DNA of 42,252 nt from an uncultured bacterium (lineage in GTDB: Bacteria; Bacillota; Clostridia; Oscillospirales; Oscillospiraceae), in contig CAMWRX010000017.1 in assembly GCA_947176765.1 (NCBI GenBank), forward strand, positions 1 through 42,252, written 5' to 3'. Positions 2-42,060 of this stretch are shown piece after piece (position 1 is the stretch's first letter; the number at the start of each line of letters is the position of its first letter). Below the pieces are notes generated by a model, which made no database searches, was not told the origin of the DNA, and saw nothing but the letters and a program-made list of their open reading frames with translations. The position numbers and the translations under genes are program-made.

Positions 2-1819
2 ACCCCGACCCCGCCGCCCATCCCTTACACCGATGTGCCCGAGGACGCACCTTACTATGACGCGGTGGTGTGGGCCTATAAGAGCGGCATCGCCTCCGAT
101 GGGGAAACGTTTGGCCCCGCCGATGCCTGTACCCGTGGGCAGGTCATGACGTTCCTGTGGCGGGCCATGGGTTCGCCAGAGCCCCAGGCTCTGTATAACC
201 CCATCAGCGATATTTCCCCCTCGGACTGGTACTACAAACCTATTTTGTGGGCCTATGAAAACGATATTGTCACCAGTACCACATTTAATCCGGGTAATCT
301 CTGCACCAACGGCGAGGCCCTCACCTTCCTGTGGCGGGCCGAGGACAAGCCCATGGCCGCTGTGGGCAGCAGCGCCATAGCCCTTGCCGCGTCCAACCAG
401 TACTTCACCCGCCCGGTGGCCTGGGCCGAGACAAACGGCCTGCTGTCTGCCGAAGTCGGCTTCAATCCCTCCGCATCCTGTCTCCGGGCCGACCTCATGA
501 GCTATCTCTACTGGGCTGAGGAGCAATGGACGGGCGCGGCGGAGGCAAAAGCGCTCCAGGCGGAATACGAGCAGATCATCAGTGACGCACAAATCTATGA
601 TGTCCATGGCTCCGGCCTAATCTACGCCGACTATGTGGACGTGGATGGGGACGGCAAGGTAGAGCTGCTGACGGTTGAAATTGACGAGGAGAAGTATAAC
701 AATATTGTGACAATATACGCGGACATTAACGGACACGCCGGGAAGTCCTGTGAGAGAGCCTTTGAGGCCCTTGTAGGGAATAGGGTCGCCGACTTTTCCC
801 TATGCAAAGCGGATGGTCAGCTCTATTTATTTGCAAGTGGATGGTATGTCGAGCGCGCGGGGGAATATTACCAATATATAGATAAGTTTTATAGGCTTGG
901 AAAGGATGCCGTCACCCTTGAGTACGATTTATATGCAGAAGAAACGGCTGTTTTTGATGAAGGTACTTATGAATATCTCTATACTGCGTATACCTATACT
1001 GCTTCCAGTAAAAAAGTCACCGAGGGTGAGTTCAAGGCACTTTTGGAAAAGTTTACAGATGAAAAGCTGCTTTATACATTTGATGTCTATGGCTTTGTAA
1101 TTGGCATAGAGGATCGCGGGCTTGTGCCCACCCCCACCATCGAAGTAAACGGCGCAGCGGTGAAGCTGTCTGCCGACCCATACATTTCCAGAGAAGATAA
1201 CGAGTTCATGGTTCCCCTCCGGGACGTGCTGGAAGCCATGGGGGTGGCCGTGTACGCTAATTCGGACGCTTCCGTTATCCTCGCGTCCACCAAGAGCGAC
1301 ACGCTGGTCATCGCCAACAAAGAATTTTCAAGTGGTATCAATGGGGAATCGTGGTGGAATTATGACAATTACAAATACACTTTGAACGGCGGCAACCCCC
1401 AGGATATTGCCCTGGAGTTCACTAATGGGAAAGCCTTTGTGCCGCTGCAGGCCATTGTACCGCTGTTCGGCGGAAAAGCGGCATGGGACGGCAAGGCGGG
1501 GGCCATACAGATCACCTCTAATATCCCCGACAGCAATCGCATGAGCCAAGATGCGCTGAAGAAAATGGCGAACTTTAGCCTTGATGACGCTATCAAAATC
1601 GGTGAGCGGAATGGCCATTCTTTTTGGGGAATGCAGGTTGCATACATCGAAGGAGGATACTATATCTCAAACGGAAAAGCAGTTTGGGAATACGCCGCGC
1701 TCCCGGCTGGGGAGGACCCGATTCGGAATCCTGCGTATGATGAGGATATCCCGGGAATCGCGCCTATTAATATGTATTACATACGGGTTGCAAATGATGG
1801 GACGATTACAAAGTCCTAA
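2..1819 (+). CDS. SLH-domain surface protein with copper-amine-oxidase-N-like stalk domain (5' truncated)
   Basis: The reading frame is open from base 2, so the true start and signal peptide lie upstream of the window; GTG at 35 is an internal Val codon inside the first domain. A Pro/Thr linker (TPTPPPIPYTDV) leads into three S-layer homology repeats, with YYDAVVWAYKSGI, YYKPILWAYENDI and FTRPVAWAETNGL as their helix cores (to about base 530). Next comes a charged region with an EF-hand-like DVDGDGKVELL (about 630-670). From about 1125 a Cu_amine_oxidN1-type domain follows (TIEVNGAAVKL, MVPLRDVLEAMGV, AFVPLQAIVPLFG), known as a stalk domain in Firmicute surface proteins. SLH repeats bind secondary wall polymers, so the protein is predicted to be displayed on the cell surface. 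No enzyme motif is seen and the C-terminal 90 residues are unassigned. It is convergent with pgi across a shared terminator. Confidence 0.85.
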   Translation, partial: TPTPPPIPYTDVPEDAPYYDAVVWAYKSGIASDGETFGPADACTRGQVMTFLWRAMGSPEPQALYNPISDISPSDWYYKPILWAYENDIVTSTTFNPGNLCTNGEALTFLWRAEDKPMAAVGSSAIALAASNQYFTRPVAWAETNGLLSAEVGFNPSASCLRADLMSYLYWAEEQWTGAAEAKALQAEYEQIISDAQIYDVHGSGLIYADYVDVDGDGKVELLTVEIDEEKYNNIVTIYADINGHAGKSCERAFEALVGNRVADFSLCKADGQLYLFASGWYVERAGEYYQYIDKFYRLGKDAVTLEYDLYAEETAVFDEGTYEYLYTAYTYTASSKKVTEGEFKALLEKFTDEKLLYTFDVYGFVIGIEDRGLVPTPTIEVNGAAVKLSADPYISREDNEFMVPLRDVLEAMGVAVYANSDASVILASTKSDTLVIANKEFSSGINGESWWNYDNYKYTLNGGNPQDIALEFTNGKAFVPLQAIVPLFGGKAAWDGKAGAIQITSNIPDSNRMSQDALKKMANFSLDDAIKIGERNGHSFWGMQVAYIEGGYYISNGKAVWEYAALPAGEDPIRNPAYDEDIPGIAPINMYYIRVANDGTITKS

Positions 1820-6660: not shown

Positions 6661-6698
6661 GCACAAAAAGGTTTGTTTTTGTACTACTAATTTTACTT

Positions 6699-6728
6699 AT
6701 TTCCTTCATTTGCAAAAATGAAGGAAAT
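6699..6728. repeat. 13-bp inverted repeat after glgA
   Basis: ATTTCCTTCATTT and AAATGAAGGAAAT form a 13-bp stem with a 4-base loop between the end of glgA and the glgP promoter. There is no good T-tract after it on the minus strand, so it may be a weak terminator or an mRNA 3'-end stabilising hairpin. Confidence 0.6.
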
Positions 6729-6751
6729 AAATCGCAAATCAGGGGAAAAGA

Positions 6752-8191
6752 TTAAATTTCCTCCGTCATAGAACGATAAATGTTCCAATAATCCTGGACA
6801 GAGCGCTTCCAGGAACAGTCGTAGTTCATGACGCTCTTCTGAAGGGCCGTCCAGTGCTCCTTGTCGTGGAACAGCTTCTCGCCCCGGCGGACGGCGTCCA
6901 GCATATCATGGGCGTTGTAGGTTTTGAAGGTGAAGCCGTTGCCCTCGCCGGTCTCAATGTCGTAGGCGGGGACGGTGTCGAACAGCCCGCCGGTCTCCCG
7001 GACGATGGGGATGGTGCCGTAGCGCATGGCGATGAGCTGGGTCAGGCCGCAGGGCTCCTGCTTGGAGGGCATGAGCACCAGGTCCGCGCCGGCGTACGCC
7101 TGATGGGCCAGGGTGTTGTCGAACACGATGTTGGCGGACATTTTGGCGGGGAAGTTGGCGGCATAGGCGCGGAACATATTCTCATAGTGCCACTCGCCGG
7201 TGCCAATGATAACCAGCTGGAGGTCGTCCCACATCAGATCGTCCATGACGGCCTGAACCAGATCCACGCCCTTGTGGCCCACCAGCCGGGTAATCATAAT
7301 GACCATGGGGACGTCGTCCCGGACGGCGAGGCCAAGGCGCTCCTGGAGGAAGCGCTTGTTTTCCGCTTTCTTCTCCAGCGTGGCGGCGTCAAAATTGGTG
7401 TAGAGCAGGGGATCGGCGGCGGGATTGAACACCTCGGTGTCGATGCCGTTGACCACGCCGCTGAGCTTGTAGGCGTGCTGGCGCAGCACATTGTGGAGGC
7501 CGTGGGCGAAATAGGGGTCCTGGATCTCATTGGCATAGGTGCGGGACACGGTGCTCACCCGGTCGGCGGTGTGGATAGCGGCCTTCATCAGGTTGGTGCC
7601 GCCATCAAATTGCATGGTGCCCTTCCAGTCAACCGGCAGGCCCAGCACCCCGTCTACAAAGTCGTCGGGGAAGCGGCCCTGATACTCCATGTTGTGGATG
7701 GTAAACAGGGTCTTGATGGGCTTGTACTTCTCCGCGCCCATGTAGAATGCCCGCAGGAACACCGGCACCAGGGCGGTCTGCCAGTCGTTGGTGTGGATGA
7801 CGTCGGGATACCAGTCCAGGTGCTGAAGGGCCTCCAGGATGGCCTTGGAGAAGAACGCGAAGCGCTCGCCGTCGTCATAGTGGCCGTAGCAGCCGTCCCG
7901 GTAGAAGTAGTACTCGTTGTCGATGAAGTAGTACTGGAGCTTTTTGCGCTTGCTCACCGCTCGGAACAGGCCGCAGTACACGTTGCGCCAGGACAGGGAC
8001 ACGGTAAAGTTGGTGAGATACTCCATCTCGAACTCGGGGTTGTCCTTGATGGCCTTATAGTAGGGCAGGAACACATACACCTCGGTGTTGGGGGACTCAG
8101 CCAGGGCCTTGGGCAGGGCGGCGGCCACGTCACCCAGGCCGCCGGTTTTGATAAAGGGCGCGGCCTCGCTGGCTGCTAATAAGATCTTCAT
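6752..8191 (-). CDS. glgA: Glycogen synthase (ADP-glucose, GT5)
   Basis: Transfers glucose from ADP-glucose to the growing alpha-1,4-glucan. The N terminus MKILLAASEAAPFIKTGGLGDV contains the ADP-glucose-binding KTGGLGD motif (residues 15-21). The C-terminal half has the GT-B donor site with PSKQEPCGLTQLIAMRYG and TGGLFDTV. At 479 residues it has the usual length of bacterial GlgA. ATG at 8191 is preceded by AAAGGAG and overlaps the glgD stop as ATGA, so translation is probably coupled; the longer frame upstream is glgD in another register. It is the last gene of the glgB-glgC-glgD-glgA operon. Confidence 0.95.
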   Translation of the reverse strand: MKILLAASEAAPFIKTGGLGDVAAALPKALAESPNTEVYVFLPYYKAIKDNPEFEMEYLTNFTVSLSWRNVYCGLFRAVSKRKKLQYYFIDNEYYFYRDGCYGHYDDGERFAFFSKAILEALQHLDWYPDVIHTNDWQTALVPVFLRAFYMGAEKYKPIKTLFTIHNMEYQGRFPDDFVDGVLGLPVDWKGTMQFDGGTNLMKAAIHTADRVSTVSRTYANEIQDPYFAHGLHNVLRQHAYKLSGVVNGIDTEVFNPAADPLLYTNFDAATLEKKAENKRFLQERLGLAVRDDVPMVIMITRLVGHKGVDLVQAVMDDLMWDDLQLVIIGTGEWHYENMFRAYAANFPAKMSANIVFDNTLAHQAYAGADLVLMPSKQEPCGLTQLIAMRYGTIPIVRETGGLFDTVPAYDIETGEGNGFTFKTYNAHDMLDAVRRGEKLFHDKEHWTALQKSVMNYDCSWKRSVQDYWNIYRSMTEEI

Positions 8192-9312
8192 ACGGTAACT
8201 CCTTTGCGAATGACAACGGGGTTGGAATCCAGCCCTCTGAGCTGTGCGCCGTAGCTGATGTTGACCCACTTGTCCACGATGACGTTTTCCAGGCAGGCGC
8301 CCTCGCCCACCACGCTGCCCTGCATGATGACGCAGTTCTTGACCTTTGCGCCTTTGCCGATCTTCACGCCGCGGGACAGCACGCAGTTTTCCACATTGCC
8401 GTCGATAAAGCAGCCATCGGCGATGATGCTGCGCTCCACCTGGCAGTCCAAGCCGTAGTAGGCGGGGACCTCGTCGGTGACGCGGGTGTGGATGGGACGA
8501 TCGCCCCGGAACAGGGCGGCGGCCACGTCGTCGTCCAGGATGGCCAGGCTGCTCTGGAAGTATTCGTTCACGTCCCGGACGCGCAGCACCTTGGTGTCCA
8601 CCTCGTAGAGGTTGATGGACAGGCGGTTCCGATTGAACTCATGCTGGATAAAGTCCCGCTGGAAGTCGTAGATGCCCCGGGCGGTATAGTCCCGGATGAC
8701 GTTGATGAGGAACTCCCGGGAGATGATCACGTGGCCCATGCCGGCGTAGTCCCCGGGCTTGGCGGGGTAATCCAGGGCATAGGAGGTCACCTTGTGGTTG
8801 GCGTCCGCCTGCATAACGGAGCTGAAATTGATGGGGGAGTCTCCCGCCTCTTTGGTGGCCAGCATGGTGATGTCGCAGCCGCTGGCGATATGATCTTCCA
8901 GGGCGGCGCGGTAGTCGATGTTGCACAGCACATAGGCGTCGGCCAACAGGACGTAGGGGGTCTTGGAGATGGTCTCCAGATAGTCAAGGGCGTTGCGCAG
9001 CTCGTCCAGTTTGCCCCGGCTGCCGCCGGTGTTGGCGTCCTCGGTGGCGAAGGGGGGCAGGAGCTGGAGGCCGCCGTTCTTGCGGTTCAGGTCCCACTCC
9101 TGGCTGTTGCCCAGGTGATCCATCAGGGAGTGGTAGTGCTGCTTGGCCAGCACGCCCACGTTGAGGATGCCGGAGTTGACCATGTTGGACAGCACAAAGT
9201 CCACCAGGCGGTAGCGTCCGCCGAAGGGGATGGCGGCCATGTTGCGGTCCTGCGTAAAGGAGTTCAGCGCGTCAGAGTACATTTCGGAGAAAATAATACC
9301 GGTCATTTTCAT
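8188..9312 (-). CDS. glgD: GlgD, degenerate ADP-glucose pyrophosphorylase subunit
   Basis: Partner subunit of GlgC in Firmicutes; in Geobacillus GlgCD the D subunit modulates the catalytic C subunit. It has the nucleotidyltransferase fold (IPFGGRYRLVDFVLSNMVNSGI) followed by a left-handed beta-helix (repeats such as GCFIDGNVENCVLSRGVKIGKGAKV). The glycine-rich catalytic loop of GlgC (AGGQGSRL) is replaced by IIFSEMYSDALNSFTQDRN, so it is probably not catalytic by itself. ATG at 9312 follows AAGGGGGTG; 374 residues is normal. It starts 13 bases after glgC and overlaps glgA by 4 bases. Confidence 0.93.
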   Translation of the reverse strand: MKMTGIIFSEMYSDALNSFTQDRNMAAIPFGGRYRLVDFVLSNMVNSGILNVGVLAKQHYHSLMDHLGNSQEWDLNRKNGGLQLLPPFATEDANTGGSRGKLDELRNALDYLETISKTPYVLLADAYVLCNIDYRAALEDHIASGCDITMLATKEAGDSPINFSSVMQADANHKVTSYALDYPAKPGDYAGMGHVIISREFLINVIRDYTARGIYDFQRDFIQHEFNRNRLSINLYEVDTKVLRVRDVNEYFQSSLAILDDDVAAALFRGDRPIHTRVTDEVPAYYGLDCQVERSIIADGCFIDGNVENCVLSRGVKIGKGAKVKNCVIMQGSVVGEGACLENVIVDKWVNISYGAQLRGLDSNPVVIRKGVTV

Positions 9313-37374: not shown

Positions 37375-37434
37375 GGGGGTATAGCTCAGCTGGGAGAGCA
37401 GACAGTACGCTTGCGTACCCCCAAAAGAGCACCA
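37375..37434 (+). pseudogene. Truncated tRNA-Ala-like sequence
   Basis: Its first 25 bases (acceptor GGGGGTA and D-arm GCTC/GAGC) are identical to the start of tRNA-Ala(GGC) at 37497. The anticodon and T arms are missing. The remainder contains GTACG-CTTG-CGTAC and TACCCCC, which can pair perfectly with the acceptor GGGGGTA, and then ends near GAGCACCA. It is either a broken duplicate or a tRNA-like small RNA. Confidence 0.7.
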
Positions 37435-37496: not shown

Positions 37497-37572
<76 letters not shown>

Positions 37573-37764: not shown

Positions 37765-37926
37765 ATGCCGGAAATTATTTTGTCCGATTATTTCTACGGT
37801 GATGAATCAGAAGAATTTATTTACTTCAAAATTCCCCGCCTGCTGATTACAGATCAGAAGTTCAAGCACGTTTCCACTGACGCTAAGCTGCTCTATAGTA
37901 TGCTGCTGGATCGCATGGGCCTGTGA
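37765..37926 (+). pseudogene. Truncated replication initiator protein A (RepA_N) fragment
   Basis: 53 residues from ATG with a good ribosome binding site (AAAGGAGGG). The sequence ILSDYFYGDESEEFIYFKIPRLLITD and DAKLLYSMLLDRMGL matches the N-terminal end of RepA-type replication initiators from clostridial plasmids and integrative elements, which continue for over 200 residues; here a stop follows MGL. The next bases in another frame read LTIDPYYSATVRHDFALK before a stop, probably a remnant of another element gene that I cannot assign. This is a deletion scar. Confidence 0.7.
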
Positions 37927-38029
37927 CAATAGACCCTTACTATTCCGCCACTGTGCGGCACGACTTCGCGCTAAAATAAATCTCACCATGAGACGCAATT
38001 TTTAGCAAATATATCAAACAGGAAGTTAT

Positions 38030-38427
38030 TCAACGGCAAAAGACAACAGTAAAGCCCCCGCAATTTCCGAACCCCAGCAAATCCCGTTGGTAAAAATCCA
38101 CGACCTACCCGGTGTGTTGTCAGCAGGCAGCTGGACAGGAGCTACGGCGGCCTCGTCACCAGCATCTAGGCGTGTGGCGTGAAGGAGCCGGTGGTGTTCC
38201 GTCTGCGCGAGGACGGCGAGTATCAGCTCGTTACCGGCTACCGCCGCCGGAGGGCCAACAAACCAGTACAGAAGCAGAACATTCCGGCGCTGGTGTACGA
38301 AATGTCCATGCAGGAGGCCCAGGACTATCACCACAGGGTGAAGAACCAGCCGAACATGGCAATCCCTGGTAAACCAGTCCTTGTTCCTGACAAGGGGCAA
38401 AAGCCGACTACCCAAAGGAAAAACTGA
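38030..38427 (+). pseudogene. Decayed ParB-like partition protein gene
   Basis: In one frame (38030-38130) it reads QQIPLVKIHDLPGVLSAGS; at about 38130 the frame shifts to LDRSYGGLVTSI, then a TAG stop near 38165, then ACGVKEPVVFRLREDGEYQLVTGYRRRR and VYEMSMQEAQDYHHRVKNQP to 38427. The combined sequence follows the ParB N-terminal nuclease-like domain of clostridial plasmids and ICEs (IHDLPGV, GGLVTSI, GVKEPV, GYRRRRA). A frameshift and a stop make it non-functional. No other gene is seen in 37927-38616. Confidence 0.7.
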
Positions 38428-38506
38428 GGATTCGGATACCAAAAGAGTCTAGGATAAGTAATCCCAGGCTCTTTTCATATTCCTTTGATGTCAGTCTATA
38501 TTGTGC

Positions 38507-38588
38507 TGTTCCATTTCCTTATCGTTTCAGAAAATGGAACATATATATTGACATAATATTAAAAATACCATATAATTAGTGTGTTCCA
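38507..38588. promoter_or_regulatory. Three TGTTCCA motifs around the ietAS-like promoter
   Basis: TGTTCCATTT (38507-38516, plus) and its exact complement AAATGGAACA (38532-38541) form an inverted repeat 6 bases upstream of the -35; a third copy TGTTCCAAATT (38582-38592) sits at the predicted transcription start, 41 bases from the second. The arrangement resembles a set of operators. Confidence 0.65.
38548..38576 (+). promoter_or_regulatory. Consensus promoter of the AAA+/subtilase operon
   Basis: TTGACA (38548-38553), 17-base spacer, TATAAT (38571-38576); perfect sigma-A consensus. Confidence 0.93.
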
Positions 38589-38616
38589 AATTTTCTAGTT
38601 ATGAGGGTGATGAAAC

Positions 38617-39735
38617 GTGGATGCTTTGGAGCTTGTGCCAAAACTATTGCGGTCCGGAATAGATGGAGATCGCAAAATGATGGAAGCAACATCATTAATG
38701 ATCATCAAGAAGATCCGAAAAGATTATCCACATGTAGCAGATGAAATATCACAAATTCTATCGTATATAGGTTCTTCATCAGCACATGCACGCTCTATAA
38801 ATTTTCCGCCCTTACCTGTTGACAAAGAATCCAGATATGCACTTGTTAACGTAGAAGATCCCTCTTTCGTTTTGCCCCCTATACTTAATGAATATACGCA
38901 ACAGCAGATACGGGATTTTATTAGGGAGAGAAATTTCCTCTCACAATTTATTCAGGCAGGGATTACACCTCCCAATAGTCTCTTGCTGTCTGGTCAGCCA
39001 GGTGTTGGAAAAACATATATTGCCCATTGGATTTCCAATCAGCTGGATCTCCCGCTTGTAACTTTGGATTTGGCTACGTCCATTTCAAGTTATCTTGGTA
39101 GATCTGGACAGAATATACGAAGCATATTTGATTATGCAAAGGCACAGTCCTCAGTACTCTTTTTGGATGAATTGGATGCTATTGCCAAGCGCCGGGATGA
39201 CGCTGGAGACTTAGGTGAGCTAAAGCGATTGGTGAACGTATTGCTTAAAGAAATTGAGGACTATCCAGTTACTGGCGTCATTATTGGAGCAACAAATCAT
39301 CCTGAACTTCTTGATAAAGCTATATGGCGCAGATTTGATAGAACATTAACTATTGAGATGCCAGAGGTTCCCGAACGCAAGCAATTACTTGCGAGGCATT
39401 TAGATGGTTATGCGGATGCAATAGGAAAAGATATAATTGATTACATTGCAATTGCTACAAATGATGTTAATTCGGCTGATATATGCAAATTATGCGAACA
39501 TATAAAAAGGCAACTCATCCTGACACCAGGAATTCCAACAAAAATCATTGCTTTGTCAGAGCTGTTTAAAATAAGAGCTCTACAAGACAAAGATGAAAAG
39601 ATAAAAATTTGTAATAGCCTTAAGAAAGAATTCCCTCATTTAACTCAGAGGGACATTTCTTTAATAACCCACATTCCGCTTACAACTGTATCTAGGTATT
39701 TGTCTAAGGGGCAAAAGGAGGATCAGAATGGGTAA
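38617..39735 (+). CDS. ietA: AAA+ ATPase, IetA-like
   Basis: 372 residues. An N-terminal helical region (1-95) precedes an AAA+ core: Walker A GQPGVGKT (126-133), Walker B VLFLDELDAI (Asp184, Glu185), sensor ATNHPE (225-230), and a box of arginines AIWRRFDR (236-242) typical of arginine fingers; the lid domain ends near 320. The C terminus LTQRDISLITHIPLTTVSRYLSK reads as a helix-turn-helix. GTG at 38617 follows AGGGTGA by 6 bases. It overlaps the S8 peptidase gene by 8 bases. ATPase plus subtilase is the known IetAS pair (Ti-plasmid stability/exclusion genes; later shown to give phage defence); assignment to that family rests on architecture. AT-rich, unlike the core genome. Confidence 0.75.
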   Translation: MDALELVPKLLRSGIDGDRKMMEATSLMIIKKIRKDYPHVADEISQILSYIGSSSAHARSINFPPLPVDKESRYALVNVEDPSFVLPPILNEYTQQQIRDFIRERNFLSQFIQAGITPPNSLLLSGQPGVGKTYIAHWISNQLDLPLVTLDLATSISSYLGRSGQNIRSIFDYAKAQSSVLFLDELDAIAKRRDDAGDLGELKRLVNVLLKEIEDYPVTGVIIGATNHPELLDKAIWRRFDRTLTIEMPEVPERKQLLARHLDGYADAIGKDIIDYIAIATNDVNSADICKLCEHIKRQLILTPGIPTKIIALSELFKIRALQDKDEKIKICNSLKKEFPHLTQRDISLITHIPLTTVSRYLSKGQKEDQNG

Positions 39736-41998
39736 ACATCCAATTATTGCAAATGGTGAGATGTATGCCGAACCCTTGTCTAAAGCACTTGGCGGGGGTC
39801 CAAAACAAATGCCTCATGATTATCTCGAAGCAAAGCAAAGAATCATTAATGCACTTGATGATTTGACTCAAAATATTGCAAAAAGCAAGGATCTTTTCCT
39901 TGACGAGAGAATAATTTGCATTAGACTTGAGCCAAAGTTTGAAGCCAAGTCTTATATACCAAATACCTTAATTAACGAAATGTCTAGCGGCTTATCTAAA
40001 ATAGTTGGTGGAAGAAAATATACCATTTCCGATAATGAAAGTGGATCATCTGCAAAATTATATTTCATTCGTACTACGGACAGCGGAATACATCAATTAA
40101 AAACCACACTCCAAAATGGTAATCGTGATAGCGTTGGGCAATGGCAGCAAGAAATTCGTTCTATCCATACCATAGATTTACTTGGGCCAGACGAAAAAAT
40201 TATGGGGTTTTCCGATGGCTGGCAGTCTGGGACAGTTGAATTTGTTCTCCATCCACTACCTTCAAATACCGAAAAGGAAATAAGCGCATTTTTCAAGCAT
40301 AGTGGTATAAATATTGATAATGCAAGAATAAAAACTTATAGTGATGGCATAACGTTTATAAGTGCTTTCTGTACACACGAAAATGTTCAACGAGTCAAAA
40401 GATACAATCCTTTGAGAGCAATTCATCCGATGGGTAGCATTAGTGTTACTCCGATTAGAAATATGGTAGGCAGCCGGTGCCCAGTGGTCCATCCATCATC
40501 TGCTAGGCCAAATATAAATATTGGTGTTTTTGATGGTGGGGCAGATGCCTCGCTTCCTCTGCTGACTGGTTATGTTACAGCAGTTGATGGTTCATCTGAG
40601 CCTGCTTTACGTGAACTACTGGAGCATGGCTCTGGTGTGTGCAGTGCGATCCTGCATGGCAACTTGGCCGGGAAAAGTGGGGCCGATATTCTTGAGCCTC
40701 CTTGCGTCACCATTAATTGCTACCGTGTATTACCTATCCATGACTATCGAGATTATGATTTGTATGAAGTGATAGACTTTATCGAGGCTGTAGTTCCAAA
40801 TTCACAAGAAACAAAATTATACAATCTATCAATCGGGCCCGTTGGAGCTATTGTTGACGATAGTATCAGCCGATTCACCTATGCCTTAGATAAGCTTGCT
40901 TATGAAGTACCAGAAGGGGCCGAAAATCCTTTATTTGTTGTTGCTGTTGGGAATGACGGGGAATTACCGCCTACGTTCAATCGCATACAATCTCCTTCTG
41001 ATACTGTGAATGGTCTCGGTGTTGGTGCTTACACATACAACGTAAAAGGAAAAAAGATACCAGCAAGCTATAGTTGTGTTGGACCTGGCAGAGAAGGCGC
41101 AAAAACAAAACCAGACTTATTAGATTTTGGTGGTAGCCTTGACCACCCTTTTGTTGTTCCATCTTTGGACCAGACATCTCTTTCTGCTACAGCTGGCACA
41201 AGCTTTGCTGCTCCAATGGTCACTGGAAAAATTGGAAAACTAATGGCACTGAGCAATCGTGTATCTCCGCATATGGGTAGAACATTGTTAATTCATAATG
41301 CTGAAATAGACAACTCAATTCCAAAAAACAATCAAGGCTTTGGATTTTGCACTGAAAACACATCTGATATACTGGAGTGTACTGATAAAAATGTAACAGT
41401 CATGTACTCCGGCATCATCTTCCCTACCCAATTTTTAAGTTTACCTATATTTGCGCCTCATATTAACGAAATGCATGGCAATGTTTCAATTAGCTGGACG
41501 GTTTCAGTAGTTGTTGCCCCTTACGCTAACGATCCAGACGCATATACCAACAATTGCTTGGAGGATGTTTTTACTCCACATAGTATGATTTTCAATTTTA
41601 CAAAGCGTGGTGCAACAGCACAAAGGATTAACCTGCTCGATGAAACAAAGATACCACTTGTTAAGCAACTAATTGGTAGTGGCTATAAACAATCTAGTGT
41701 TCCAGTAAGTCATCCAGCAAAGAGAACGTGGGACGAAGATGACTTGCGCTCTGTTGATTTAAAATGGGATACTGTAATCCACAAGAGCGTAACAATGAGA
41801 AGCAGTTCCCTCTTTAGTCCCACACTAACCCTACACGCGCTAGGTAGAAATGGCTTTGATACTGAGAAAATTCGATATAATGTAGCAATTACAATAAAGG
41901 CACCCAAATATGAAGGAAGTTTATATGACGCAATTCTTCAGACCTATCAAAACCTTACTCCCATTGAAATTAGGAATATCAGTCGTCTGACAGTATAA
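39728..41998 (+). CDS. ietS: Subtilisin-like serine protease (S8), IetS-like
   Basis: 756 residues, no signal peptide, so cytoplasmic. The first 255 residues have no domain that I recognise. The S8 domain follows with the full triad: Asp269 in NIGVFDGGAD, His300 in EHGSGVCSAI and Ser492 in AGTSFAAPMVTG, plus the oxyanion Asn409 in VAVGNDGE. The C-terminal 220 residues look beta-rich and are unassigned. ATG at 39728 follows GGAGG by 7 bases and lies inside the end of the ATPase gene, indicating coupled synthesis. In IetAS the protease is thought to be the effector or toxin and the ATPase its controller or sensor; this is inferred here. AT-rich like its partner. Confidence 0.8.
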   Translation: MGKHPIIANGEMYAEPLSKALGGGPKQMPHDYLEAKQRIINALDDLTQNIAKSKDLFLDERIICIRLEPKFEAKSYIPNTLINEMSSGLSKIVGGRKYTISDNESGSSAKLYFIRTTDSGIHQLKTTLQNGNRDSVGQWQQEIRSIHTIDLLGPDEKIMGFSDGWQSGTVEFVLHPLPSNTEKEISAFFKHSGINIDNARIKTYSDGITFISAFCTHENVQRVKRYNPLRAIHPMGSISVTPIRNMVGSRCPVVHPSSARPNINIGVFDGGADASLPLLTGYVTAVDGSSEPALRELLEHGSGVCSAILHGNLAGKSGADILEPPCVTINCYRVLPIHDYRDYDLYEVIDFIEAVVPNSQETKLYNLSIGPVGAIVDDSISRFTYALDKLAYEVPEGAENPLFVVAVGNDGELPPTFNRIQSPSDTVNGLGVGAYTYNVKGKKIPASYSCVGPGREGAKTKPDLLDFGGSLDHPFVVPSLDQTSLSATAGTSFAAPMVTGKIGKLMALSNRVSPHMGRTLLIHNAEIDNSIPKNNQGFGFCTENTSDILECTDKNVTVMYSGIIFPTQFLSLPIFAPHINEMHGNVSISWTVSVVVAPYANDPDAYTNNCLEDVFTPHSMIFNFTKRGATAQRINLLDETKIPLVKQLIGSGYKQSSVPVSHPAKRTWDEDDLRSVDLKWDTVIHKSVTMRSSSLFSPTLTLHALGRNGFDTEKIRYNVAITIKAPKYEGSLYDAILQTYQNLTPIEIRNISRLTV

Positions 41999-42060
41999 CT
42001 CCTTTTCCTCCTTACGTATTAGTGCATACCTGTAAGTCCAATTATGAGAACGTGCGATTG

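What the first reader, a model, noticed from the sequence alone, without database searches (positions are those of the whole stretch)
38617..41998. Intact IetAS-like AAA+ ATPase / cytoplasmic subtilase operon
Seen: two overlapping genes, a complete AAA+ ATPase (Walker A, Walker B, arginine fingers) and a complete S8 protease (Asp269, His300, Ser492) without signal peptide. Known: the same pair in Agrobacterium is IetAS, affecting Ti-plasmid stability/exclusion, and later reported as anti-phage. Inferred: this is a divergent, Gram-positive member whose protease is kept in check or triggered by the ATPase. The 255-residue N-terminal and 220-residue C-terminal parts of the protease are not recognised and may be the sensing parts.
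Basis: partly seen in the sequence, partly recalled or inferred. Interest (0 to 1): 0.8.

Follow-up and report, generated by a model that had tools for sequence, protein, structure and literature searches.

The report
IetAS-type protease and ATPase gene pair
This is a real, intact member of a known bacterial toxin–antitoxin and anti-phage gene pair (IetAS); the less expected part is that its ATPase seems to end in a DNA-binding domain and its promoter is framed by four repeated boxes with regular spacing, so the pair may well regulate itself.

Summary
In detail: an intact AAA+ ATPase gene (38617-39735) overlaps by 8 bp an intact S8 protease gene (39728-41998). Both match PADLOC's IetA and IetS profiles (E = 2.8e-90 and 4e-49), so this is a member of a known kind. 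It is not a lone Gram-positive outlier: ten loci of Clostridia and Coriobacteria share 46-50% IetS identity, and a mycoplasma pair was shown by others to be toxin plus antitoxin.

Correction: the "unrecognised" ends of the protease resemble known folds, an I9-propeptide-like domain (about 166-235) and a beta domain as in SubHal/KP-43.

Addition: all 73 IetA aligned end in a helix-turn-helix-like segment. In the window a 12/12 consensus promoter is framed by four boxes (+ - + -, about 28/75/28 bp). The layout recurs in 17 of 30 near loci, window included (shuffles 0), and in 5 of 7 held-out near loci (shuffles 0), with different letters by lineage. IetA is therefore probably a DNA-binding autoregulator as well as antitoxin. 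This is inferred; published reporter data on a relative argue against simple repression.

The pair lies near the edge of an apparent tRNA-Ala-integrated element. Toxicity, anti-phage activity and trigger are untested here.

The parts
38617..39735 (+). ietA-like gene: AAA+ ATPase, 372 aa, probable antitoxin and DNA-binding autoregulator
   Evidence: (PDLC02196 E=2.8e-90)
38980..39357 (+). AAA module of IetA (residues 122-247) with Walker A/B, pore-loop-like SSYLG (157-161) and RR finger
   Evidence: fold like FtsH/p97/PAN
39643..39729 (+). C-terminal helix-turn-helix-like part of IetA (residues 343-371; helices 344-351 and 355-371)
   Evidence: model pLDDT 92.5; Pfam HTH_24 matches 32 of 73 and HTH_23 31 of 73 relatives at E<=0.1; column conservation
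39728..41998 (+). ietS-like gene: S8 subtilase without evident signal peptide, 756 aa, probable toxin/effector
   Evidence: PDLC02197 E=4e-49; PF00082 E=4.3e-23
39908..40177 (+). first N-terminal alpha/beta unit of IetS, residues about 61-150
   Evidence: element order in the model; ProN-Tk-SP alignment starts at residue 97; boundaries approximate
40223..40432 (+). I9-propeptide-like domain of IetS, residues about 166-235; R230 invariant in 70 of 70
40514..41344 (+). S8 catalytic domain of IetS (residues 263-539; D269, H300, N409, S492)
41375..41902 (+). C-terminal beta domain of IetS (residues about 550-725), as in SubHal/KP-43
38507..38513 (+). operator box 1, TGTTCCA
38535..38541 (-). operator box 2, TGTTCCA on the minus strand
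   Evidence: the exact pair with a 15-25 bp gap occurs once in the 2.67 Mb genome
38548..38576 (+). promoter-like TTGACA, 17 bp, TATAAT (12 of 12)
38582..38588 (+). operator box 3, TGTTCCA, near the expected transcription start
38610..38616 (-). operator box 4, GTTTCAT on the minus strand (weak), directly before the GTG start
38603..38607 (+). ribosome-binding-site-like GAGGG before ietA
   Evidence: read in the sequence
37497..37572 (+). tRNA-Ala(GGC), apparent integration site; its last ~60 bases are repeated in two other contigs
37765..37926 (+). remnant of a RepA_N replication initiator (profile 3-36 of 76)
   Evidence: start read
38179..38427 (+). remnant of a ParB N-terminal domain protein (profile 41-85 of 95)

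Best explanation
The locus is an IetAS module near the left edge of a mobile element inserted in tRNA-Ala. IetS is a cytoplasmic subtilase with an I9-like domain in front of its catalytic domain; free or activated IetS is toxic to the cell by proteolysis. IetA is an AAA+ protein that neutralises IetS. IetA also carries a C-terminal helix-turn-helix that binds four inverted boxes framing the promoter, so the antitoxin (alone or with IetS) tunes transcription of its own operon, probably by repression, because boxes 3 and 4 cover the start region. Loss of IetA activity or of the IetA:IetS balance (phage takeover, or loss of the element) would free IetS and stop or kill the cell, protecting kin from phage or punishing loss of the element. 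Shown here: the genes, the kept active sites, the predicted folds, the HTH-like segment, the operator layout and its recurrence in the near group, the junctions with tRNA-Ala. Shown by others for relatives: toxicity of the protease and neutralisation by the ATPase. Inferred: that IetA is what binds the boxes, the sign of regulation, the trigger, and phage defence by this copy.
For: IetA and IetS profiles; catalytic and ATPase residues invariant. Relatives: protease toxic and ATPase neutralising in E. coli (PMC8562856 section 12), neutralisation also in mycoplasma (its abstract), and sgiAT in E. coli (PMC5006074, passages). HTH predicted with high confidence in the window protein and conserved as a pattern. 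Four-box operator: score >=25 of 28 in 17 of 30 near loci against 0 in each of 12 shuffle rounds, and 5 of 56 far loci against a mean of 0.17; held-out loci 5 of 7 near against 0 and 1 of 25 far against 0; three boxes, 16 of 29 near against a shuffle mean of 0.15, and 6 of 600 upstream regions of other ORFs. The boxes frame a 12/12 promoter and the box pair is unique in the genome. PMC9927553 (section 6) calls its PsgiAT results in agreement with self-regulation. I9-like and beta domains. Mobile-element setting.
Against: 13 of 30 near loci and 51 of 56 far loci do not reach the four-box threshold; one of the 17 that do (L041) has its boxes shifted upstream (first at -185), so that they do not frame its promoter. 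Some of the 17 are close kin of each other (L027/L028, L021/L022). Box-HTH covariation does not separate HTH from kinship: partial r is 0.32 for box with HTH given the body and also 0.32 for box with body given HTH. PsgiAT was strongly active and seemed raised, not lowered, by SGI1 in two backgrounds (PMC9927553 section 6), against simple autorepression in that relative. sgiAT gave no post-segregational killing from its own promoter (PMC5006074). In B. subtilis the mycoplasma protease was expressed but the growth lag was reported for the ATPase A132, not for the protease (PMC8562856 section 12). Nothing here shows toxicity, protease activity, phage resistance, or that the I9-like domain inhibits; the join to the catalytic domain is less certain in the model (blocks 231-240 and 241-250 at pLDDT 76 and 65). 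NCBIfam equivalog cut-offs are not met.
Confidence: 0.6

Rival explanations
1. Same family, but the main role is stabilising the mobile element (addiction module); phage defence is incidental or absent in this copy. IetA decays faster than IetS when the element is lost and IetS kills the cell.
For: Intact pair beside decayed RepA_N and ParB_N genes near a tRNA-Ala junction. No match in the 399 other genomes of the family searched (E<=1e-20) or in 198 other relatives (E<=1e-10). Relatives sit on plasmids and phages. sgiAT is reported to promote SGI1 maintenance (PMC5006074, title and passages).
Against: No post-segregational killing for sgiAT from its own promoter. Some relatives sit beside defence-like genes: Shedu (L011), AAA ATPase plus UvrD helicase (L007); others lie in phages or viral contigs.
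Confidence: 0.25
2. The four boxes are bound by a different regulator, not by IetA; the IetA HTH serves protein contacts or oligomerisation.
For: Binding is not tested; box-HTH covariation is not separable from kinship. HTH segments can act in other ways (general knowledge).
Against: The layout recurs upstream of ietA in Clostridia, Bacilli and single loci of other phyla at score >=25 and in Coriobacteria at 23-24 (titles; scores). No gene common to all ten nearest loci lies beside the pair, judged by eye from ORF beginnings (not searched against profiles). IetA is the constant HTH protein.
Confidence: 0.15
3. IetA activates IetS rather than restraining it: the AAA+ ring pulls the I9-like domain off the catalytic domain when it meets a phage signal.
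For: Pore-loop-like SS(Y/F/L)LG motif (label recalled) and FtsH/p97/PAN-like fold fit an unfoldase; IetS has an I9-like domain.
Against: In tested relatives the protease alone is toxic and the ATPase neutralises it in E. coli (PMC8562856 section 12; PMC5006074), the opposite of an activator under those conditions.
Confidence: 0.12
4. Inactive relic in this genome.
For: Neighbouring RepA_N and ParB_N genes are remnants; low-GC stretch in a GC-richer contig.
Against: Both frames open, catalytic residues and a 12/12 promoter kept.
Confidence: 0.05

Closest known systems
IetAS / IteAS (Agrobacterium pTiC58 toxin-antitoxin; later reported anti-phage)
   Same: Same order of AAA+ ATPase and S8 protease; PADLOC IetA and IetS profiles over most of both proteins.
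   Different: Below NCBIfam equivalog cut-offs (247.6 of 510, 104 of 900). The founding paper (PMC2704731) and the anti-phage paper (10.1126/science.aba0372) are not held; their details are recalled or taken from papers that cite them.
SGI1 sgiAT
   Same: AAA antitoxin plus subtilisin-type toxin on a mobile island (PMC5006074, passages).
   Different: Proteobacterial hosts; PsgiAT reported strongly active and apparently raised by SGI1 (PMC9927553 section 6). Its sequence was not compared here.
Mycoplasma mycoides subsp. capri A132/T133 module
   Same: 353 aa ATPase upstream of a 757 aa S8 protease; toxicity and neutralisation shown in E. coli (PMC8562856).
   Different: Sequence not fetched or compared here; a word search of the paper found no HTH and no operator for this pair.
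Paenibacillus phage Yyerffej/Callan/Dash pairs
   Same: Same pair in phage genomes, 37% IetS identity; four-box layout upstream of ietA in Callan, score 27.
   Different: Box CATTCGA and the recognition helix differ from those in the window.

Membership tests
IetAS | AAA+ ATPase of the IetA family over its whole length | tested here: met
   PADLOC PDLC02196 E=2.8e-90, residues 3-366 on 3-372 of 374
IetAS | S8 protease of the IetS family beyond the generic S8 domain | tested here: met
   PADLOC PDLC02197 E=4e-49, residues 22-567 on 25-580 of 749; full-length relatives aligned
IetAS | ietA directly upstream of ietS, co-oriented | tested here: met
   8-bp overlap in the window. In 93 of the 95 rows the gap is 77 bp or less; exceptions L015 (1508, insertion sequence between) and L045 (574, ietS start unclear). 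L003's ietS start is an artefact of the script. L009 and L047 have no ietA in the stretch held
IetAS | Intact Walker A/B, arginine finger and Asp-His-Ser triad | tested here: met
NCBIfam IteA/IteS equivalogs (NF042959, NF042956) | Score above the curated cut-off | tested here: not met
   247.6 against 510 and 104 against 900: filed with the wider family, not with these equivalogs
Type II toxin-antitoxin | Toxicity of IetS and its neutralisation by IetA | not testable with these tools
   Shown only for relatives (PMC8562856, PMC5006074)
Type II toxin-antitoxin | Antitoxin binds operators in its own promoter | tested here: inconclusive
   HTH-like segment and four-box layout present; binding not tested; PsgiAT data point the other way in sign
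Anti-phage defence system | Reduces phage plaquing | not testable with these tools
   No phage data for this copy
I9-type propeptide of subtilases | beta-alpha-beta-beta-alpha-beta order directly before the S8 domain | tested here: met
   Element order E167-174 H181-192 E200-203 E209-216 H217-223 E229-234 and 3whi range 166..550; no Pfam I9 match at E<=1, and the domain was not folded or searched alone, so fold resemblance only

The most novel reading that the evidence does not exclude
IetA is a DNA-tethered AAA+ sensor: its ring is held on the four-box operator (two inverted pairs 75 bp apart, about seven helical turns), looping the promoter, and this DNA-bound state is the one that controls IetS. 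Destruction or takeover of the host template by a phage, or loss of the element that carries the operator, would itself be the trigger that frees the protease. That would join element addiction, incompatibility and phage defence in one mechanism.
Probability: 0.12. Interest if true: 0.75.

Novelty: new member of a known kind. Interest (0 to 1): 0.45.

Why it matters
IetAS is annotated as a defence system but its mechanism is described as unknown (PMC11878078, passages; PMC9958689, passages). A conserved DNA-binding-type tail on the ATPase, and an operator whose layout is kept while its letters change between lineages, give a concrete hypothesis that a gel shift and a reporter fusion can decide. 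The I9-like domain suggests a second level at which the protease may be held inactive.

Tried and rejected
A single-protein viral scan with the window IetS found no relative; an alignment-based scan then found 74 loci. Box-HTH covariation as proof of IetA binding: rejected as proof, because kinship explains it equally well. Fixed four-box geometry for the whole family: not established for the far group (5 of 56, 1 of 25), although GGACTA is enriched there (19 counts, about 18-fold over the background of the 31 loci scanned). A looser three-box scan without fixed spacing gave 11 of 86 at 14 of 14 against 0.2 expected, but only 53 against 32.3 at 12. The I9-like domain gave no Pfam match. In the viral-structure search for IetA the 50 rows shown were, by name, mostly AAA-type or related ATPases, the rest unnamed. 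Paper searches with combined terms returned nothing; nine paper searches were made in all. The members of A4 were not scanned against PADLOC (one search failed). An IetA tree and a search for phage decoy boxes were not done.

Settings: box length (7), thresholds and spacing ranges were chosen after looking. The shuffles (100 rounds, 12) and the 600 upstream regions used the same settings; those 600 lie before mechanical ATG ORFs of 150 aa or more in the same loci, not before proven genes. One search is a held-out test with settings kept, but its loci are only under 85% identical to earlier IetA, so not evolutionarily independent. 'Near' means the window, L004 and L019-L046 (33% IetS identity or more) plus two Enterococcus loci at 30-31% (L005, L049); one search counted L045 as far. 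Rows dropped: searches used 86 of 97 loci (L003, L006, L015, L020, L040, L050, L067, L070, L093 as near-duplicates, truncated or interrupted; L009, L047 without ietA); one search used 32 of 79 (near-duplicates, no suitable ietA ORF, or too little upstream DNA).
Full report
What is there. Two intact, overlapping genes on the + strand: 38617-39735 (GTG start, 372 aa) and 39728-41998 (ATG, 756 aa). GC is 38-42% over 39001-42000 and 45% over 38001-39000, against about 55-67% for most of the window, with a few other windows at 47-53%. The contig ends at 42252.

Family. PADLOC gives IetA E=2.8e-90 (residues 3-366) and IetS E=4e-49 (residues 22-567). In Pfam, AAA and Peptidase_S8 pass their cut-offs; generic AAA-type and HTH models (HTH_24 at 339-364, E=0.008) match IetA weakly. 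NCBIfam IteA/IteS match below their curated cut-offs. Active-site residues are invariant in 73 of 73 IetA and 70 of 70 IetS sequences. These alignments hold the window plus relatives from the genome scan (80 loci, L019-L098; the scan kept the best 80 of 235); A3 leaves out L020, L040, L047, L050, L065, L067, L070, L093, and A4 leaves out those and L041, L042, L045. So the pair is a member of a known kind.

Distribution. IetS matched only the window's own genome among 199 relatives (E<=1e-10) and among 400 genomes of the family (E<=1e-20); it matched 2 of 394 genomes of the order and 5 of 398 of the phylum at E<=1e-60, own genome included in each. 44 of 72,556 plasmid records and 12 of 50,697 phage records match (E<=1e-5), among them Paenibacillus phages (37%), a Pf phage and a Peduoviridae phage. 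This is the pattern of a mobile cargo.

Setting. tRNA-Ala(GGC) lies at 37497-37572, followed by remnants of RepA_N and ParB_N genes and then ietAS. The last ~60 bases of the tRNA occur again in contigs 10 and 23 of the same genome. In a same-genus relative (L113) the DNA matching the window through trkH's end is followed directly by tRNA-Ala and a glycosyltransferase-like ORF (the ORF names here are by eye). In the window's genome the trkH side is in contig 17 (the window), and a like glycosyltransferase and purA-like stretch is in contig 23, right after a large serine recombinase (18004-19644 of L118) and a tRNA 3' copy. Contig 23 also carries a type IV coupling-protein match, a TraG P-loop match and an NlpC/P60 match. 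The simplest reading is a conjugative-type element inserted at tRNA-Ala, with ietAS near its left end. That contigs 17 and 23 are the two ends of one element is inferred; contig 10 may carry another element.

Structure of IetA. Mean pLDDT 92.5: N-terminal helices, an AAA module whose solved relatives include FtsH, p97 and PAN, and a C-terminal HTH (helices 325-338, 344-351, 355-371). Among 73 IetA members, 32 match Pfam HTH_24 and 31 HTH_23 at E<=0.1. Position 343 is S or T in 73 of 73, 345 is R in 63, 352 is G in 61, 358 is I/V/L/M in 73. The structure itself was predicted for the window protein only. Word searches found no HTH in PMC5006074 or PMC8562856, and no held paper had five of six combined terms; the founding papers are not held, so I do not claim that it is unpublished.

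Operator. The window has a promoter-like site that matches 12 of 12 consensus positions with a 17-bp spacer. TGTTCCAWWT occurs three times in 42 kb, all within 85 bp around it (expected 0.26, no shuffle of 100 reached three; motif chosen after seeing it). The boxes are at 38507 (+), 38535 (-), 38582 (+) and, weaker, 38610 (-). The exact inverted pair occurs once in the 2.67 Mb genome. Relatives show the same layout with other letters: TGTATCA, TATCCCA, TGTTTCA, ATTCGAT, TGTTCGA, TGTACTA. Tests: three boxes, near group 16 of 29 at >=13 of 14 against a shuffle mean of 0.15 (max 2 in 100 rounds), far 2 of 57 against 0.18, other upstream regions 6 of 600; four boxes, near 17 of 30 (window included) at >=25 of 28 against 0 in 12 rounds, far 5 of 56 against 0.17; held-out loci, near 5 of 7 against 0, far 1 of 25 against 0. 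One of the 17, L041, has its boxes shifted upstream and does not fit the framing. Box similarity follows HTH similarity (partial r 0.32, permutation p 0.002, 21 loci) but follows the rest of IetA equally (0.32), so this does not by itself identify the binder.

Mechanism. Published tests on relatives: the protease is toxic and the ATPase neutralises it in E. coli (PMC8562856 section 12; PMC5006074 passages), with mycoplasma confirmation in the abstract of PMC8562856; in B. subtilis the protease was expressed, but the only growth lag reported for this pair was with the ATPase. In a discussion passage those authors cite a founding paper for plasmid stability in Agrobacterium, which I could not read. 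I combine this with the HTH and operator into an autoregulated protease toxin-antitoxin. Against simple repression or addiction in SGI1: PsgiAT is strongly active and seemed raised by SGI1 in two backgrounds, which the authors relate to self-regulation (PMC9927553 section 6), and sgiAT gave no post-segregational killing from its own promoter (PMC5006074 passages). Anti-phage activity of IetAS is known to me from recall (Gao et al. 2020) and from papers that annotate it as defence (PMC9958689, PMC11878078, passages). PMC11878078 reports a statistical link with resistance, but its IetAS-bearing Pf phage gave no lysogens in the strains tried, so that direct test could not be made there (section 10).

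Verdict. Observation confirmed; interpretation partly right; a new member of a known kind. The worthwhile addition is the conserved HTH-like tail and the operator layout, which make regulation of this system directly testable.

Noticed in passing
37375-37399: A copy of the first 25 bases of tRNA-Ala lies about 100 bases before the intact tRNA-Ala. L113-L115 have one tRNA copy and lack the stretch between; L112 (another same-genus genome) aligns across the whole arrangement and 58 bases beyond the tRNA, up to its contig end.
   Followed up: partly
L116 (contig 10 of the same genome), 6672-8491: A third copy of the tRNA-Ala 3' end overlaps the end of a large serine recombinase gene near tRNA-Pro: probably another integrated element.
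   Followed up: partly
L118:1-19644 (contig 23): Conjugation-type genes, a partial C5 cytosine methylase match and a sigma-70 region 2 match upstream of a large serine recombinase: likely the other end of the element.
   Followed up: partly
L015 (Paenarthrobacter aurescens plasmid pTC1): An ISAau1 copy lies between the ATPase gene and a shortened protease gene, a naturally interrupted pair.
   Followed up: no
L023 1447-13639: A near relative of the pair sits among phage-tail-like ORFs (judged by eye from ORF beginnings).
   Followed up: no
far-group ietA upstream regions (e.g. L055, L063, L079, L091, L097): TGGA(C/A)(G/T)A-type boxes occur with an -RDT(I/L)R- recognition helix, often at shifted positions; the layout there deserves its own analysis.
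   Followed up: partly
L007 6553-8690: Rhizobium ietAS neighbours a ThiF-family and a multiubiquitin gene and, on the other side, AAA ATPase and UvrD-helicase genes.
   Followed up: no
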